Shown: positions 340-6,206 of the stretch, in pieces
Layout of the letters: every line of letters begins with the position of its first letter
How positions within the stretch are numbered: the first letter of the stretch is position 1
Origin: Anaerolineae bacterium
GTDB lineage: Bacteria > Chloroflexota > Anaerolineae > UBA1429
Direction: 5' to 3'
NCBI GenBank assembly: GCA_016928125.1
Contig: JAFGLK010000343.1
Coordinates: forward strand, 1 to 6,206
DNA: 6,206 bases
Notes under the pieces: model-generated
Seen by the model: the letters and a program-made list of their open reading frames with translations, nothing else
Databases searched by the model: none
Told to the model about the DNA's origin: nothing
Program-made: the position numbers and the translations under genes

Positions 340-641
340 GACACAAGACGACGATCAGGAGGAGTAGGCTGGCGCGAGCTGGTAGAGAAGAGGGGTCACC
401 GGCTGCAAGCCCCTCGCAGCGGACGCAGCTGAAGGTCGCCTGGGAGTTGATCGGTCGAAAGGCCCGTCTGCGAGCCCACTAGATCGGTACGGGTGCGCCC
501 GTTACAGCGTCACGAGTGCGCGCTTCGCGCCCCTCATGGGCCGTGGCGCGAAGCGGAGTGGTACCGCGGAAGGCGTCCGACTGATCCGGCTGCCCTTTCG
601 TCTCCTGGAGCAGGTCTTCACGAGATGAGAGGGTTTTTTTG
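340..641 (+). ncRNA. T-box riboswitch (tRNA-Val-sensing leader of valS)
   Basis: The valS leader has the full layout of a transcriptional T-box. Stem I closes with CGATCA (352-357) against TGATCG (448-453), then AGGC (366-369) against GCCT (438-441), then AGCTG (377-381) against CAGCT (426-430). The apex is GAGGGG (390-395) with CCCCTC (410-415), with an AGAGA motif at 384-388. The 3' side of the internal loop reads GAAGGTC (431-437). It places GUC (435-437), a valine codon, as the specifier. ACGGG/CCCGT (489-493, 498-502) is a small hairpin, perhaps Stem III. A 10-bp helix (522-531 with 545-554) precedes the T-box sequence AGTGGTACCGCGG (557-569). The antiterminator can form by GGAG (555-558) pairing with CTCC (602-605), which competes with the terminator at 593-633. 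Uncharged tRNA-Val should favour readthrough into valS. The boundaries and the Stem II region (454-488) are approximate. Confidence 0.92.
593..640 (+). terminator. Intrinsic terminator of the T-box leader
   Basis: CCCTTTCGTCTC (593-604) pairs fully with GAGATGAGAGGG (622-633), a 12-bp stem with two G-U pairs and a 17-nt loop. A run of seven T (634-640) follows immediately, then GTTTT. The 5' arm overlaps the bases needed for the antiterminator (CTCC at 602-605), so the two folds are mutually exclusive. Confidence 0.9.
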
Positions 642-654
642 TTTTCTCTGACAT

Positions 655-661
655 GGAGGTG
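655..661 (+). promoter_or_regulatory. Ribosome binding site that sets the valS start at 668
   Basis: GGAGGTG (655-661) lies 6 nt before the ATG at 668. An earlier in-frame ATG at 653 overlaps this Shine-Dalgarno sequence and has no ribosome binding site of its own. Starting there would add only MEVNA, so 668 is the better start. Confidence 0.85.
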
Positions 662-667
662 AACGCC

Positions 668-3424
668 ATGAGCAGGCCACCGATCCCGACCGAGATGGGG
701 CGCACGTTCGACCCCGCCGCCATCGAGCGGCCTCTTTACGACTGGTGGGAGGCGCAGGGCTACTTTAGGCCCGTCATCGATCCGGAGCGCAAGCCCTTTG
801 TCATCTCCATGCCGCCGCCGAACGTCACCGGCGCGCTGCATCTCGGCCATGCCATCACCGCCTCGGTGGAGGATGCCCTGATCCGCTACCGGCGCATGAC
901 CGGCCAGCCCACCCTGTGGGTGCCCGGCTCGGACCATGCCGGCATCGCCACCCAGAACGTGGTGGAGCGCGAGCTGGCCAGAGAGGGCCTCACGCGCCAC
1001 GATCTGGGGCGCGAGACGTTCATCGAGCGGGTGTGGGAGTGGAAGGAGGTCTATCACGCGCGGATCACCGAGCAGCACCGGCGCTTGGGCGTCTCGTGCG
1101 ATTGGGAGCGCGAGCGCTTTACGATGGACGAGGGCCTCTCACGTGCCGTGCGCGAGGCGTTCGTGCGCCTGTACGAGGATGGCCTGATCTACCGCGGCGC
1201 CTATCTGATCAACTGGTGTCCCCGCTGCGGCACGGCCATCTCTGACCTGGAGGTGGAGCACGAGGACGAGGAGGCCCACCTCTGGTACGTGCGCTACTGG
1301 AGCGAGGACCGCTCGCACAGCATCACCGTGGCCACCACGCGCCCAGAGACGATCCTGGGCGACACCGCCGTGGCGGTGCACCCCGATGACGCCCGTTACA
1401 CGGACATGGTGGGGCGCAATGTCGTGCTGCCCGCCATCGGGCGCGTGATCCCGATCATCGCCGACGAAGCGGTGGACCCCGAGTTCGGCACGGGCGCGGT
1501 CAAGGTGACCCCGGCCCACGATCCCACCGACTATGAGATTGGCCAGCGCCACGGCCTGCCCATCATCGACGTGATGAACGACGACATGACCATGAACGCC
1601 GAGGCCGGCCCCTACGCCGGGATGGATCGCTTTGAGTGTCGCCAGCAGCTTGTGGCCGACCTGGAGGCCATGGGCGATCTGGTGAAGATCGAGGACCACT
1701 TGCACGCCGTGGGCCACTGCCAGCGCTGCGCGACCATCGTCGAGCCGCGAATCAGCACCCAGTGGTTCGTGCGCGCCAAGCCGCTGGGCGACCCCACGCT
1801 GGAGGCGGTGGAGGATGGCCGTCTGCGCATCGTGCCCGAGCGTTTCACCAAGATCTATCGTAACTGGATGGAGAATATCCGCGATTGGTGCATCTCGCGC
1901 CAGCTCTGGTGGGGGCACCGCATCCCAGTGTGGTATTGCGACGACTGCGGCGCCCAGATCTGCGCCCGCACCGATCCCACCGAGTGCCCCCAATGCGGCA
2001 GCGCAAACATCCACCAGGACGAGGACGTGCTCGACACCTGGTTCTCGTCGGGGCTATGGCCCTTTTCGACGCTCGGCTGGCCGGAGCAGACCGAGGATTT
2101 GGCCTATTTCTACCCCACCTCGGTGCTCGAGACGGGCTATGACATCCTCTTCTTCTGGGTGGCACGCATGGTCATGCTGGGTATGCGCCTGACCGATCAG
2201 GTGCCGTTTCATACGGTCTATCTGCACGGTCTGGTGCGCAATGAGGACGGCAAGAAGATCAGCAAGTCGATGGAGGACGCCTGGCGCTACGACCCGCTCC
2301 ACATGATCGACGAGTACGGTCAGGACCCGCTGCGCTTCACGCTGCTCACCGGCTCGACGCCCGGCACCGACATGCGGCTCTCACCAGCGCGCGTCGAGGC
2401 CAACCGCAACTTTGGCAACAAGATCTGGCAGGCGGCCCGCTTTGTGCTCGCCAAGCTCGACGACGCGCCCCCGCCGCTCGGTGAGCCTGTCGAACCGCCG
2501 GCGGCTGAGCCTGTCGAAGCCGAGTCTCTCGCCCCTTCGACAAGCTCAGGGGCTGCGCCCCTGCCGCTGGCGTCACTGTCCCACCCCGCCGATCGCTGGA
2601 TCGTCAGCCGCTATCATGCCCTGGTCGCCTCGGCCACCCGCCTGATCGAGGGCTACCAACTTGGTGAGGCCGGCCGTCAGATCTATGATTTCCTATGGGG
2701 CGAGTATTGCGACTGGTACATCGAGATGACCAAGGTGCGCTTTCGGGAGAACAGCCAGGAGGCCGGGGACGTCGGCGCGGCGCAAGACGCGCGCGGTGTG
2801 CTCGTGTATGTGTTGGAGGGCTGCCTGCGGCTGCTGCACCCCTACATGCCCTTTGTGACCGAGACGATCTGGCAGTATCTGCCCCACGCGGGCGAGGCGC
2901 TGATCGTGGCGCCCTGGCCGCAGGGGGGCGATACGGATGTCACACTCGAGCAAAGCCTGGAGGGCTTTATGGAGCTGGTGCGCGGCATCCGCAACGCCCG
3001 CACCGAGTACGACGTGGAGCCGGGGCGGCGCATCGCGGCGATCATCTCGGCCGGCGAGAACCTGTCGCTGCTCGAACAGCTCTCCGGCGAGCTCCAGGCC
3101 CTGGCGCGCATCGACCCGCAGCGGTTGCAGATAGCACGCGAGCTGGCCGAGCCGCCGCAAAAGGCGTTGACGCTGGTGGCGGGTGGCTATGCCTGCTACC
3201 TGCCGCTCGCGGCCTTGGTAGACCTGGATCGGGAGCGCACCCGCATTCAGGGCGAGTTGGGAGCGCTCCGCGGTGAGATCAGCCGCTCCGAGAAGCTACT
3301 CGCCAACCCGGGCTTTGTGGGCAAGGCGCCCGAGGCGGTGGTGCAGCGCGAGCGCGACAAGCTGGCCGACCTGGGCCAGTCGCTGGCCACCCTGCAGGAG
3401 CGCCTCACGAGTCTGACAGAGTAG
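668..3424 (+). CDS. valS: Valyl-tRNA synthetase (ValRS)
   Basis: This cytoplasmic class I enzyme charges tRNA-Val with valine and hydrolyses mischarged Thr-tRNA-Val. It has 918 aa from the ATG at 668, a normal ValRS length. Visible elements in order: PPPNVTGALHLGHA with the HIGH motif as HLGH (58-61); a Cys pair C184/C187; the CP1 editing domain with TTRPET (223-228) and GTGAVKVTPAHD (274-285); a second Cys pair C351/C354; the conserved WCISRQLWWGHRIPVW stretch; a zinc ribbon C424-x2-C427 / C440-x2-C443; WFSSGLWPFSTLGWP; the signature lysine loop as KISKS (530-534), followed by MED; an alpha-helical anticodon-binding domain from about residue 643 (ADRWIVSRYHAL); and a C-terminal coiled-coil tRNA-binding arm (about 850-918). 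Residues 605-630 are a low-complexity Pro/Glu/Ser linker encoded by inserted DNA repeats. The upstream T-box with a GUC specifier independently supports the specificity. Confidence 0.98.
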   Translation: MSRPPIPTEMGRTFDPAAIERPLYDWWEAQGYFRPVIDPERKPFVISMPPPNVTGALHLGHAITASVEDALIRYRRMTGQPTLWVPGSDHAGIATQNVVERELAREGLTRHDLGRETFIERVWEWKEVYHARITEQHRRLGVSCDWERERFTMDEGLSRAVREAFVRLYEDGLIYRGAYLINWCPRCGTAISDLEVEHEDEEAHLWYVRYWSEDRSHSITVATTRPETILGDTAVAVHPDDARYTDMVGRNVVLPAIGRVIPIIADEAVDPEFGTGAVKVTPAHDPTDYEIGQRHGLPIIDVMNDDMTMNAEAGPYAGMDRFECRQQLVADLEAMGDLVKIEDHLHAVGHCQRCATIVEPRISTQWFVRAKPLGDPTLEAVEDGRLRIVPERFTKIYRNWMENIRDWCISRQLWWGHRIPVWYCDDCGAQICARTDPTECPQCGSANIHQDEDVLDTWFSSGLWPFSTLGWPEQTEDLAYFYPTSVLETGYDILFFWVARMVMLGMRLTDQVPFHTVYLHGLVRNEDGKKISKSMEDAWRYDPLHMIDEYGQDPLRFTLLTGSTPGTDMRLSPARVEANRNFGNKIWQAARFVLAKLDDAPPPLGEPVEPPAAEPVEAESLAPSTSSGAAPLPLASLSHPADRWIVSRYHALVASATRLIEGYQLGEAGRQIYDFLWGEYCDWYIEMTKVRFRENSQEAGDVGAAQDARGVLVYVLEGCLRLLHPYMPFVTETIWQYLPHAGEALIVAPWPQGGDTDVTLEQSLEGFMELVRGIRNARTEYDVEPGRRIAAIISAGENLSLLEQLSGELQALARIDPQRLQIARELAEPPQKALTLVAGGYACYLPLAALVDLDRERTRIQGELGALRGEISRSEKLLANPGFVGKAPEAVVQRERDKLADLGQSLATLQERLTSLTE
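2482..2494 (+). repeat. Repeat core copy 1 (direct)
   Basis: TGAGCCTGTCGAA, identical over 13 nt to copy 2. It encodes the first EPVE tetrapeptide of the ValRS linker. Its flanks (CGG on the left, CCG on the right) can also pair, so the copy is a potential small hairpin. Confidence 0.8.
2505..2519 (+). repeat. Repeat core copy 2 (direct), left arm of an inverted repeat
   Basis: CTGAGCCTGTCGAAG, extended by one matching base at each end beyond the 13-nt core. It encodes the second EPVE. It is complementary to copy 3 at 14 of 15 positions. Confidence 0.85.
2535..2549 (-). repeat. Repeat core copy 3 (inverted), right arm of an inverted repeat
   Basis: The plus strand reads CTTCGACAAGCTCAG, the reverse complement of CTGAGCTTGTCGAAG. 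It differs from copy 2 by one base (T for C). It encodes PSTSSG in the ValRS frame. It is itself enclosed by GCCCC (2531-2535) and GGGGC (2549-2553). Confidence 0.85.
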
Positions 3425-3508: not shown

Positions 3509-4129
3509 GTGAGCGTCAAGAGGCCGCAACGGCTCTGGGTTTTGGCCCTGGTGGGCGTCGGGGTGTTGGCCATTACGGTCCTGTTGGATCTGATCGTGCC
3601 TTATGACGGCCCGCTCGACCTGATCATCCGGGGTGCGGCGATGGCCGCCTACATGACCACCTTTCTATCGATCCTGTCGAGCCACTCTCTGCGCGAGCTG
3701 GTGCGCTTTTTCGGCACGCCCTTTCTCAAGGTGCATCACTATGCCACCGTCACGAGCCTGATTCTGATGACCGTGCATCCCGTGGCGGTGGCTTTGCGGG
3801 CGGGCAGCCCCGGCGTGTTCGTGCCCGTGATCAGCTCGTGGTACGAGTTCTTTCTGTTCGGGGGGCGTCAGGCCTGGTACCTCTTTCTGATCGCCAGCGG
3901 GGCGGCTCTGGCACGCCGCGTCTGGCGCGCCAACTGGCGCACCCTCCACTGGCTGAGCTACCTGGCGTTCCTGTTTGTCACGGTGCACGGCATCCTGCTG
4001 GGGGCCAACTTTGCGCTGCCCGCGGTGCGGGTTATCGCTCTTCTGATGGCCGTCGCGGTCGTGCGCCTGTTTGTGCTCAAGCGTGCGGCGATGGCGCGTG
4101 AGAAGGCGCGGCGCCCGCGCCCCAGGTAG
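3509..4129 (+). CDS. Ferric-reductase-like transmembrane b-type cytochrome
   Basis: A 206-aa integral membrane protein with a GTG start, set by AGGAGG (3498-3503) five nt upstream. Six hydrophobic segments are visible, at about 9-30, 37-57, 76-95, 121-135, 146-165 and 168-190. A basic tail follows (KRAAMAREKARRPRPR). Two helices carry histidine pairs spaced 13 residues apart: H77/H90 (HHYATVTSLILMTVHP) and H147/H160 (LHWLSYLAFLFVTVHG). This is the arrangement that ligates two stacked b hemes in the ferric reductase / NADPH oxidase / MsrQ (YedZ) superfamily. The family role is to move electrons across the membrane. The FAD- and NAD-binding domains of full ferric reductases are absent, so a separate donor protein is expected. 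No MsrP-type molybdoenzyme gene is in the window, so msrQ is not assigned. A micropeptide frame follows 3 nt after the stop. No clear promoter lies in the 84-nt gap after valS. Confidence 0.85.
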   Translation: MSVKRPQRLWVLALVGVGVLAITVLLDLIVPYDGPLDLIIRGAAMAAYMTTFLSILSSHSLRELVRFFGTPFLKVHHYATVTSLILMTVHPVAVALRAGSPGVFVPVISSWYEFFLFGGRQAWYLFLIASGAALARRVWRANWRTLHWLSYLAFLFVTVHGILLGANFALPAVRVIALLMAVAVVRLFVLKRAAMAREKARRPRPR

Positions 4130-4285: not shown

Positions 4286-4299
4286 GGCCTCAGCAGGCC
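4286..4299. terminator. Small hairpin between the convergent genes
   Basis: GGCCT (4286-4290), a 4-nt loop and AGGCC (4295-4299) overlap the stop codon of the minus-strand peptidase. Neither side has a T tract, so at most it is a weak terminator or an RNA end-protecting stem. The remaining gap, 4232-4285, shows nothing else. Confidence 0.25.
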
Positions 4300-5894
4300 C
4301 CGACCCGCACCGTCGCCCGATACGGCTCGAACAACTCGCTCACCAGCTCGATGCAGACGCCGCCGGGCAGATCAAGCCGGGTGCGGCCATCGGGATCGCC
4401 CACGCCGTGCAGCGTGGGGCGCGCGCGGCTCCGATCCCGGATCGGACCGGCCTGCGCCCCCTCCCCCAGGGGCAGCTTGGTCACCGTGTCGCCTCGCCCA
4501 TGGGAGGCCGAGATCACGTGATAGACGATCACACCCGACGTCGGCGGGCCATAGGAGGCGGCCGCGTCGCGCGCCTCCACGATGTAGAACGCGCCTGGAT
4601 CGTCGCTCAGCGGGTCGTCCAGCGTCAGGATGGCGTCGTTGGGCTGTTGCCATTCCAGGGCGGTGAGCGTGTAGGTCTCGTTGAGGCGACCGGGTGCGTA
4701 GCGCAGCCAGCCCGCGGCCTGTTTGGTGTACGAGGACATGTGGGTGGGCTGGGCGCGGCGCACTGCCCCCGTCTCGCTGCCGATCCCCATCAGGTCCCAG
4801 ATGCCCACGTCGCCAACATCGCCCCCAGTCTCCTCGCAGATGTAACGGTCAGTGATCCGATGCACGCCCTGCGCCGAGGCTACTCGGCTGTAGAGGGTGT
4901 GCCCCAGCTCGTGCGCCCAGGTGCCGAGCATGTCGGCCTGTGAGATGAGCACGAGGTCCGAGACGTACACGCGCCCTCCCGTCGCGGGCAACCCGATCTC
5001 AAACGCCGCGCCGCCGGCCACGTGCATGGCTCGCGGTGAGGTCGAGCCGGTGGCCCGGTTGAGCGTGTCAAAGGGGGTCACCACGATGACCCGATCCACA
5101 TAGGCCGGCGAGGCGGGCGAGAGCGTGGCCGCGGCGGCTCGCAGGGCCGCGACGACCAGGTCGAACTCGCGACCCGCATAGTCCGCGAGCGCTGGCCCGA
5201 TGCTGAACCAGTCGTCGTCGCCCGCGGGGCCATCGGCGTCGCCCAGGGTGAAGGCGAAATCCACCCGATTGTAGGCGTTCGCGGTATAGTACATCTGAAA
5301 GTAGTCCAGTTGCACGGCAAAGTAGGGCGAGGGCGTCCCGGGCAGATCGTCGGTCTCGGCGCGGATGACCAGGCTGGCGGGCAGGCCGCAGAGGTTGTGG
5401 GCGTCGGCGGCGTCCGCCAGGGCCGCGGCGATGGCGTCCTCGCGCCCCGCGCCCGCGTCGTCGTGGGCCGCCAGGGTGTAAGGCCCGCAGCGCCAGGCGA
5501 TCACGCCCCTGCCCGCCGCGAGCGGATCCTCAGGACGCGAGATGACCGCCTCGCGCCCGCGGTAGAGCCCCAGCACTAGCCCCTGGACGCGCAGGTCGTC
5601 CAGCAGGGAGGGGGCCTGGAGGCCGTCCGCCACGCTGATCACCGCCCGCTGGGCGCCGCCGGAAGCCGCGATCTGCCAGGCCTCGCCGCGCAGGTCGGGG
5701 CGCGCGACGATCTCCCTCGGCCAGCCCAGGCCAGTGCCCGCGTCGCCCAGGATCTGCGCGATGGCCGCCTCGGGCGCCGCGACGGCCGGGACGACCTCCG
5801 CCGCAGACGTGCCGGCTGCCAGCATGTAGGCCAGCGCAAGCAATACCCGCCACACCATCTGCCGCAGGCCGCCGTCCACCTTGTGTTGGTCCAT
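4290..5894 (-). CDS. Exported M6-like zinc metallopeptidase
   Basis: A 534-aa protein starting at the ATG at 5894, set by AGGAGG (minus strand, 5905-5900) with a 5-nt spacer. A signal peptide is visible: a basic start, a hydrophobic core MVWRVLLALAYMLAAG (13-28) and a likely cleavage after TSA (29-31). The mature protein has a roughly 190-aa N-terminal region that I do not recognise. The catalytic part has HELGH (328-332), in which the two His bind zinc and Glu activates water. A GIWDLMG Met-turn-like segment follows (364-370), then PTHMSSYTKQAAGWL (383-397), and later FYIVEARD (436-443) and SGVIVYHV (453-460). This order (HExxH, WDLM, 'K--GW', 'E-R', 'G--(I/V)YHV') is that of the M6 / immune-inhibitor-A group. 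The usual third-ligand extension of the HExxH motif is not conserved: position 335 is Tyr and 338 is Val. H345 or D349 could substitute. It is probably secreted or periplasm/wall-located. The substrate is unknown. Confidence 0.8.
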   Translation of the reverse strand: MDQHKVDGGLRQMVWRVLLALAYMLAAGTSAAEVVPAVAAPEAAIAQILGDAGTGLGWPREIVARPDLRGEAWQIAASGGAQRAVISVADGLQAPSLLDDLRVQGLVLGLYRGREAVISRPEDPLAAGRGVIAWRCGPYTLAAHDDAGAGREDAIAAALADAADAHNLCGLPASLVIRAETDDLPGTPSPYFAVQLDYFQMYYTANAYNRVDFAFTLGDADGPAGDDDWFSIGPALADYAGREFDLVVAALRAAAATLSPASPAYVDRVIVVTPFDTLNRATGSTSPRAMHVAGGAAFEIGLPATGGRVYVSDLVLISQADMLGTWAHELGHTLYSRVASAQGVHRITDRYICEETGGDVGDVGIWDLMGIGSETGAVRRAQPTHMSSYTKQAAGWLRYAPGRLNETYTLTALEWQQPNDAILTLDDPLSDDPGAFYIVEARDAAASYGPPTSGVIVYHVISASHGRGDTVTKLPLGEGAQAGPIRDRSRARPTLHGVGDPDGRTRLDLPGGVCIELVSELFEPYRATVRVGAC

Positions 5895-5913
5895 GCTGCC
5901 CTCCTCCACCCCA

Positions 5914-5951
5914 CGCTCGCTGCGCTCTTTCTGCCCTGAGCGTAGCGTGCG
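5914..5951 (-). other. Hairpin in the 5' leader of the peptidase gene
   Basis: CGCTGCGCTC (5918-5927) pairs with GAGCGTAGCG (5938-5947), one pair being G-T, around a 10-nt loop. Three further pairs extend it (5914-5916 with 5949-5951) past a T-T mismatch. The hairpin ends 8 nt upstream of the Shine-Dalgarno sequence of the minus-strand peptidase. It could influence mRNA stability or translation, or it could be a decayed repeat. No T run follows it in either direction. Confidence 0.5.
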
Positions 5952-5994
5952 CGCGTCAGGAGAAGGTTCGCCCAACGTCAGCCCGCCGTAGGGC

Positions 5995-6023
5995 TTGCGC
6001 AGGGCTATCGTTGGTGTTACAAT
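5995..6023 (+). promoter_or_regulatory. Promoter candidate for the SARP-like regulator
   Basis: TTGCGC (5995-6000) and TACAAT (6018-6023, five of six to consensus) are separated by 17 nt. This places transcription start near 6030, about 35 nt before the ATG at 6065. The local drop in GC content (TTACAATGTTTATGG) within otherwise GC-rich DNA supports it. No comparable promoter was found for the divergent peptidase. Confidence 0.6.
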
Positions 6024-6064
6024 GTTTATGGTGCTATGGGCTTTGTTTGGGCGGGGAGGCGCGC

Positions 6065-6206
6065 ATGCCACGCCTGTCCATCGCGCTCCTGGGGCCTTTT
6101 GATGCCAAGCTGGATGGCGAGCCGATCGCGACCTTCGAGTCGCGCCTGGTGCGGGCGCTGCTGGCCTATCTGGTCATGCGCCCCGGCCGACCCCAGCCCC
6201 GCGAGT
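6065..6206 (+). CDS. SARP/BTAD-type transcriptional regulator, N-terminus, cut by the right edge
   Basis: The ATG at 6065 is preceded by GGAGG (6055-6059) with 5 nt spacing, and 47 codons run open to the edge. The peptide starts MPRLSIALLGPFDAKLDGEP, then has FESRLVRALLAYLVMRPGRP and QPRE. The pattern 'L-I-LLG-F---LDG-P----ES---RALLAYL----GRP--RE' is the N-terminal winged-helix DNA-binding start of SARP/AfsR/DnrI-like regulators. In Chloroflexota these are often large proteins with a BTAD domain, sometimes followed by an ATPase and TPR repeats. Only the start is seen here, so the total architecture and target are unknown. It is divergent from the exported peptidase, with a 170-nt shared intergenic region. 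Confidence 0.8.
   Translation, partial: MPRLSIALLGPFDAKLDGEPIATFESRLVRALLAYLVMRPGRPQPRE

What the first reader, a model, noticed from the sequence alone, without database searches (positions are those of the whole stretch)
2480..2561. Dispersed-type DNA repeats domesticated as a protein linker inside essential valS
Three copies of TGAGCyTGTCGAA, two direct and one inverted, sit in-frame at the junction of the ValRS catalytic and anticodon-binding domains. They add about 26 residues (605-630, with EPVE twice and PSTSSG) without breaking the frame. Such repeats normally lie between genes. Finding them fixed in an indispensable enzyme, exactly at an interdomain boundary, suggests an insertion tolerated there and kept open in one of the few stop-free frames. 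Copies 2 and 3 form a 15-nt inverted repeat with one mismatch, so the mRNA may also carry a hairpin mid-gene that could slow translation between two folding domains.
Basis: partly seen in the sequence, partly recalled or inferred. Interest (0 to 1): 0.72.

Follow-up and report, generated by a model that had tools for sequence, protein, structure and literature searches.

The report
Codon-sized palindromic repeats inside valS
Three copies of a short hairpin-forming repeat, scattered through many related Chloroflexota genomes, have landed inside the gene for valyl-tRNA synthetase without breaking it, probably because the repeat comes in 24-base pieces that can be read as protein in almost any frame.

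Summary
Three exact copies of TGAGCYTGTCGAA (two direct, one inverted) lie in frame in valS of a Chloroflexota-like contig, between the catalytic and anticodon-binding domains. The linker is 51 residues, against 23-35 in the 120 best homologues: a net gain of about 21. AlphaFold gives 610-632 pLDDT below 50.

The core is a dispersed, hairpin-forming repeat: 224 of 396 genomes of a related class have it, up to 493 copies. Its flanking arms co-vary. Of 86 copies in five genomes, 56 are intergenic and 21 deep inside genes, including purL-, priA- and mutS-like ones. Against a congeneric genome, three clean inserts are exactly 24 nt (two deep in genes, one at a gene edge) and two clusters are 72 and 96 nt. 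Five of six frames of the unit are nearly always open, so domestication is not needed to explain survival.

It works like intragenic REP/RPE repeats, published inside tRNA synthetase genes (PMC3733652), but does not fit the GTAG or CGTC definitions. Only 1 of 60 RAYT/Y1 loci has a core nearby. What moves it is unknown.

The parts
653..3424 (+). valS, valyl-tRNA synthetase, 923 aa (ATG 653; a second ATG at 668 is possible)
   Evidence: ORF; Pfam PF00133, PF08264, PF10458; 1gax (T. thermophilus ValRS) E 1.8e-232
2479..2553 (+). Repeat cluster (75 nt, about 25 codons, residues 609-634) in the linker; net +21 residues against the closest relative
   Evidence: pLDDT below 50 for residues 610-632
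2479..2497 (+). Copy 1: arms CGG/CCG around core 2482-2494 (encodes GEPVEP)
   Evidence: 3 contiguous arm pairs beyond the T-A pair
2502..2522 (+). Copy 2: arms CGGC/GCCG around core 2506-2518 (encodes AEPVEA); core starts exactly 24 nt after that of copy 1
   Evidence: 4 arm pairs
2531..2553 (-). Copy 3: arms GCCCC/GGGGC around core 2536-2548, inverted (encodes APSTSSG); core start 30 nt from that of copy 2
   Evidence: 5 arm pairs
2505..2549 (.). Inverted pair of copies 2 and 3: 15-nt arms 2505-2519 and 2535-2549, one mismatch; predicted hairpin
   Evidence: folds of 2500-2554 (DNA, z -2.54; RNA, z -2.73)

Best explanation
The feature is a cluster of three monomers of a dispersed palindromic (REP-like) repeat that inserted into the flexible linker between the catalytic and anticodon-binding domains of ValRS in this lineage. 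The unit is about 24 nt: a 13-nt fixed core TGAGCYTGTCGAA with short arms that change sequence but mostly stay complementary. Shown: dispersal in relatives, co-varying arms, absence of the ValRS insert in 120 homologues, inserts of exactly 24 nt (and 72, 96 nt) against empty sites in a congeneric genome of another lineage, open reading in five of six frames, predicted disorder of the ValRS insert. Inferred: the valS insert arose in the same way; it persists because a stop-free, codon-multiple insert in a linker is close to neutral; the hairpin is the form recognised by whatever copies it. Unknown: the copying machinery.
For: Three exact copies, 0 of 200 shuffles gave as many matches. 120 of 120 listed homologues lack the extra residues. 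The core is present in 224 of 396 genomes of the class, up to 493 copies; the reversed control pattern gave 0-3 per genome, strands summed (read by eye). Arms pair at positions 1, 2, 3 in 71, 80, 47 of 85 copies; 5000 within-genome shuffles reached at most 64, 70, 41. Arm types include CC..GG 52, GG..CC 8, GC..GC 6, CG..CG 2, GT..AC 1, CT..AG 1. 21 of 86 copies are deep inside called genes; 18 of the 19 proteins concerned have a Pfam match, including purL-, priA-, mutS- and hsdM-like ones. Empty sites in G032: clean inserts of 24, 24 and 24 nt, clusters of 72 and 96 nt; in a survey of gaps the only ones of exactly 24 nt were these three, all with the core. Core-to-core spacing is a multiple of 3 in 3 of 3 coding pairs and 0 of 7 other pairs; in the window it is 24 and 30. 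Low-confidence linker.
Against: The window's own genome could not be searched. The 15 genomes of the nearest family carry only 0-2 copies each, so the repeat cannot be shown to be abundant in this lineage. Relatives with an empty valS linker are too diverged at the DNA level to fix the insert's ends: the block covers 75 nt, the net gain is 63 nt, and three units would give 72. Of seven core sites or clusters compared with G032, two were not clean (L190 6603, L188 6250) and one could not be aligned (L186 7693). Genes were called by my own simple method. Copies are related by descent, so the shuffle counts are not probabilities.
Confidence: 0.85

Rival explanations
1. Domestication: the insert was kept because the longer linker, or the mRNA hairpin, helps ValRS fold or function.
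For: It sits at an interdomain boundary. The 55-nt inverted pair folds well as RNA (-28.8 kcal/mol, 1 of 200 shuffles as stable). All three copies use frames giving Pro/Glu/Ser/Gly-rich, linker-like peptides.
Against: The same repeats lie in unrelated genes at varied places. A hairpin follows from any inverted pair. 120 of 120 listed homologues lack the insert.
Confidence: 0.08
2. The repeat is mobilised by a RAYT (HUH tyrosine transposase) acting in trans, as proposed for GTAG REPs and REPINs. This concerns the mover and is compatible with the best explanation.
For: Inverted pairs at recurrent spacing (46 nt in 3 of 4 G413 pairs) look like REPINs. By my count, 22 of the 23 genomes with 50 or more copies have an NF047646 match, against 295 of 396 overall; the 23rd (G065) has two PF01797 matches.
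Against: A core (up to 1 mismatch) lies within the stretch held (up to about 1.5 kb each side) of 0 of the 30 RAYT loci fetched and 1 of the 30 Y1 loci fetched from core-rich genomes. 5 of 14 core-rich genomes have no PF01797 match (one of these, G304, has an NF047646 match at 4.6e-7; the other four were not searched with NF047646; completeness of the genomes is not told). No GTAG tag in the consensus.
Confidence: 0.25
3. Chance or internal duplication: a Pro/Glu-rich linker that expanded by local tandem duplication and resembles the repeat by accident.
For: Cores of copies 1 and 2 are exactly 24 nt apart, as after a tandem duplication.
Against: The third copy is inverted; the 13-mer is that of the dispersed repeat of many Chloroflexota and of a Sphingobium plasmid. 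The arms of the three copies differ, yet each pair is complementary.
Confidence: 0.04

Closest known systems
CGTC-tagged REPs (Di Nocera et al. 2013, PMC3733652; seen: abstract, parts 1-2 of 4 of Results, the section on transposases, part 1 of 2 of Discussion, found passages)
   Same: Small palindromic repeats in many species, dimers in opposite orientation, no linked transposase, copies inside known genes including tRNA synthetases; more than half of the intragenic inserts are dimers or groups encoding 20-30 residues.
   Different: Here 3 arm positions co-vary plus a T-A pair, then G.A mismatches, not a stem of 8-9 bp beginning with A/T; YGTCC precedes only 24 of 63 CC-armed copies; unit of 24 nt; Chloroflexi are not among the five phyla the paper lists for CGTC repeats.
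GTAG REPs / REPINs with RAYT transposases (PMC3733652 as above; PMC3116915 seen in search listing only)
   Same: Dispersed, mostly intergenic, inverted pairs at set spacing.
   Different: No GTAG tag in the consensus; not found next to RAYT genes (1 of 60 loci).
Rickettsia palindromic elements (RPE; as described in passages of PMC3733652)
   Same: In-frame insertions of palindromic repeats within functional protein genes.
   Different: Different hosts; the unit here is 24 nt. Sequence relation to RPE not tested.

Membership tests
CGTC REP | Terminal CGTC (or TGTC, CCTC) motif outside the stem | tested here: inconclusive
   [CT]GTCC directly before the core in 24 of 63 CC-armed copies, [CT]G[CT]CC in 42 of 63; not before the window copies
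CGTC REP | Stem of 8-9 bp with A/T in first and second position | tested here: not met
   Arms co-vary at 3 positions only, position 4 not; inner GAG~CGA fixed, i.e. G.A mismatches inside
CGTC REP | Loop of 4-5 nt | tested here: inconclusive
   CYTGT is a 5-nt loop only if tandem G.A mismatches are counted as stem (my reading); folded singly as DNA, each copy leaves 11 nt unpaired
CGTC REP | Short unpaired tail, mostly CCA | not tested
   Not counted; the consensus after the core is GG(G/A)
CGTC REP | No association with transposase genes | tested here: met
   1 of 60 RAYT/Y1 loci has the core; other transposase classes not tested
CGTC REP | Intragenic copies occur | tested here: met
   21 of 86 copies deep inside called genes
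GTAG REP / REPIN | GTAG tag at one end | tested here: not met
   Consensus
GTAG REP / REPIN | Copies next to RAYT genes | tested here: not met
   1 of 60 loci
GTAG REP / REPIN | Inverted pairs at set spacing | tested here: met
   G413: 46 nt between starts in 3 of 4 pairs; more in the place list
Rickettsia palindromic element | In-frame insertion in functional protein genes | tested here: met
   Open ORFs with Pfam domains; empty sites. That the proteins function is inferred
Rickettsia palindromic element | Sequence similarity to RPE families | not tested
   No RPE sequence was fetched
MITE | Target-site duplication | tested here: inconclusive
   Three clean 24-nt sites: none at L190 12588, GG on both sides at L186 11136, GGCGG on both sides at L188 5119, where GGCGG also begins other inserts (L186 11136)

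The most novel reading that the evidence does not exclude
A codon-sized mobile palindrome: a 24-nt hairpin unit that spreads in Chloroflexota (and sits on plasmids of Proteobacteria) without a linked transposase, in quanta of 24 nt, and is 'ORF-transparent' because its length is a multiple of three and five of its six frames are open. It would act as a generator of short disordered linkers in host proteins, ValRS included, and define a REP superfamily distinct from the GTAG and CGTC types.
Probability: 0.35. Interest if true: 0.65.

Novelty: new variant of a known kind. Interest (0 to 1): 0.45.

Why it matters
REP-like repeats inside genes are known, but how those without a linked transposase move is open (PMC3733652). 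Filled and empty sites differing by exactly 24 nt in two congeneric genomes give a direct handle: insert length, target sequence and frame can be read off. The valS case suggests that even a tRNA synthetase accepts three units, and that in-frame survival can follow from the unit's length and codon content without selection for function.

Tried and rejected
Counting copies in the window's own genome: no genome is held; genomes of relatives were used instead. RAYT linkage: tested and not found, though RAYTs are common in core-rich genomes. Text searches for the core or 11- to 15-letter pieces of it: one search found 0 papers, one search found 3, one search found 8, one search found 26 (25 listed); by title and abstract start they look unrelated, and none was opened. 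Figures are not held, so a consensus printed in a figure would be missed. Alternative inner stems with loop CYTGT: none recurrent (GAG~CGA 73, any other at most 2). A second congeneric pair (G010/G432) did not cover the priA-like site. L180 had no useful counterpart in G032, and L186 7693 could not be aligned. Frame preference: 10 of 21 interior copies use the antisense frame giving PST(G/S)SG and the like, but this was noticed after the fact and clustered copies are not independent, so I do not rest on it. Two CG..CG-armed copies (L175 8391, L186 16849) lie in similar stretches and may be coding sequence rather than repeat; they were kept in the 85.

Full report
Observation. The window holds valS (653-3424, 923 aa) with three exact copies of TGAGCYTGTCGAA at 2482 (+), 2506 (+) and 2536 (-). 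They lie in frame between Pfam tRNA-synt_1 (residues 28-577) and Anticodon_1 (647-793). Shuffled windows gave a mean of 0.2 matches at up to two mismatches, and 0 of 200 gave four.

Is it an insertion? Of 7999 scored homologues the best 120 were listed, and all 120 were aligned. Residues 596 to 646 number 51 in the window protein and 23-35 in the 120 others, most often 29-30. The closest, P0001 (78% identity), has 30 (counted on the alignment). The net gain is therefore about 21 residues, not 26. T. thermophilus ValRS (1gax) aligns up to query residue 601 and again from 646, its residues 592 and 606. An AlphaFold model from 55 sequences (mean pLDDT 87.1) has only two stretches of three or more residues below 50: 1-4 and 610-632, the latter between helices 578-601 and 645-666.

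What is the repeat? No genome is held for the window, so relatives were used. Among 11 genomes of ValRS relatives the core has 139, 65, 15 and 6 copies in four, 1 in two and 0 in five; the reversed control has 0-1. In 396 genomes of the class of G001, 224 have at least one copy, with up to 493 (G191). The 15 genomes of the family nearest to the window (that of G001) have 0-2 each. Of 33 further genomes reached through named loci 15 have it, with 63-109 copies in five Chloroflexota, one of them titled Dehalococcoidia, and 0-3 in the Bacillota and Clostridia-type ones (names). A Sphingobium plasmid (weak hit, E 2e-3) carries a pair with the layout of copies 2 and 3: GGGC-core-GCCC followed by an inverted copy. 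A pair from L206 hit 45 plasmid records at E up to 1, of Moraxella, Sphingobium, Phyllobacterium, Nitratireductor, Comamonas, Novosphingobium and others; apart from the Sphingobium one these were not inspected base by base.

Anatomy. 88 copies were found in the fetched stretches of five genomes after dropping those within 40 nt of a stretch's end; 85 remained after merging duplicates. The bases flanking the core pair at positions 1, 2 and 3 in 71, 80 and 47 of the 85. Within-genome shuffles reached at most 64, 70 and 41 in 5000 tries; position 4 shows nothing (24 of 85). Pair types vary (CG, GC, TA), so the arms co-vary, though the copies are related by descent and the shuffles are not probabilities. 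The window copies follow the rule with three different arms: CGG/CCG, CGGC/GCCG and GCCCC/GGGGC. The inside of the core does not vary: with a CYTGT loop and paired arms, GAG~CGA occurs 73 times and any other at most twice. Variants with other loops, such as GAAG (6) and AAAG (4), occur in G011.

Where the copies lie. With a simple gene caller of my own, 86 distinct copies in the five genomes divide into 56 intergenic, 21 deep inside genes, 8 near a gene end or with weak coding signal on one side, and 1 partial, while 77-87% of the sequence is called coding. The 21 deep copies lie in 19 genes; 18 of the 19 proteins have a Pfam match, among them purL-, priA-, mutS-, hsdM-, inositol monophosphatase- and FAD oxidoreductase-like ones. 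The encoded peptides include EPVE and PST(G/S)SG, as in ValRS.

Empty sites. G032, congeneric with G011, has orthologous DNA at about 81-87% identity in the stretches used. Three sites are clean inserts of exactly 24 nt in G011: L190 12588 and L188 5119, deep inside genes, and L186 11136, 26 nt from the called start of a gene. A three-core cluster in a HemN-like gene (L189) is an insert of 96 nt, aligned as 42 + 54, and a cluster of degenerate copies, none exact, in the L188 phosphodiesterase-like gene is an insert of 72 nt. Two further core sites were not clean (L190 6603; L188 6250, net +24), and L186 7693 could not be aligned. A survey of gaps of 6 nt or more in the BLAST-aligned stretches found gaps of exactly 24 nt only at the three core sites; it missed the L189 cluster, which falls between aligned pieces. 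No consistent target duplication is seen: none at L190 12588, GG on both sides at L186 11136, GGCGG on both sides at L188 5119; GGCGG also begins the L186 insert, so it may belong to the element.

Why it is tolerated. In a 24-nt block around each of 85 copies, four frames are open in all 85, one in 82 and one in none. Length a multiple of three plus five open frames means that most insertions into a gene would keep the reading frame. Core spacings are multiples of three in 3 of 3 coding pairs (two of them in one cluster) and 0 of 7 other pairs; in valS they are 24 and 30. Together with a disordered linker this can explain survival without a function.

Mechanism. Inferred: the hairpin is the recognised form. 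A RAYT is the obvious candidate, but a core lies near 0 of 30 RAYT loci from the class and 1 of 30 Y1 loci from core-rich genomes, and 5 of 14 core-rich genomes had no PF01797 match. On the other side, by my count 22 of 23 genomes with 50 or more copies have some NF047646 match, against 295 of 396 overall, so action in trans is not excluded.

Comparison with the literature. Di Nocera et al. 2013 (PMC3733652; abstract, half of Results, the transposase section, half of Discussion and found passages seen) describe GTAG and CGTC REPs. They report that CGTC REPs are not associated with transposase genes, and that REPs occur inside known genes including tRNA synthetases, more than half of the inserts being dimers or groups encoding 20-30 residues. 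The present repeat works like these, but its stem does not fit the CGTC definition, its tag fits only in part, and Chloroflexi are not among the phyla listed for CGTC, so it is not filed as a member. The 13-letter core was not found in print in four text searches; figures were not searchable.

Verdict. The domestication claim is not supported; a near-neutral insertion of a codon-sized mobile palindrome is the better reading.

Noticed in passing
window 342-587: T-box leader upstream of valS (RF00230, 67.3 bits, E 1.3e-14), below Rfam's gathering score of 93, so missed by the default search.
   Followed up: partly
window 4293-6071 (-): M6-peptidase-like protein, Pfam PF05547 just under its cut-off (21.1 against 22 bits).
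   Followed up: no
window 3509-4129: 206-aa protein that looks hydrophobic by eye, without a Pfam match.
   Followed up: no
L227 7154-7242: In G010 the copy inside the priA-like gene is part of a longer stretch (up to 89 nt) that recurs elsewhere in that genome at 89-96% identity.
   Followed up: no
L171-L190 (G011): Sister repeats with other loops (TGAGC-GAAG/AAAG-TCGAA) and paired arms; a 23-nt gap at L190 13065 looks related.
   Followed up: partly
IMG/VR contigs, L292 and following: CCTGAGCYTGTCGAAGG has at least 120 matching stretches in viral contigs (scan stopped at its limit); whether phages carry it or these are host DNA or chance was not examined.
   Followed up: no
G013:C291:6126-8795: valS match with one in-frame TAG in a relative's genome.
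   Followed up: no
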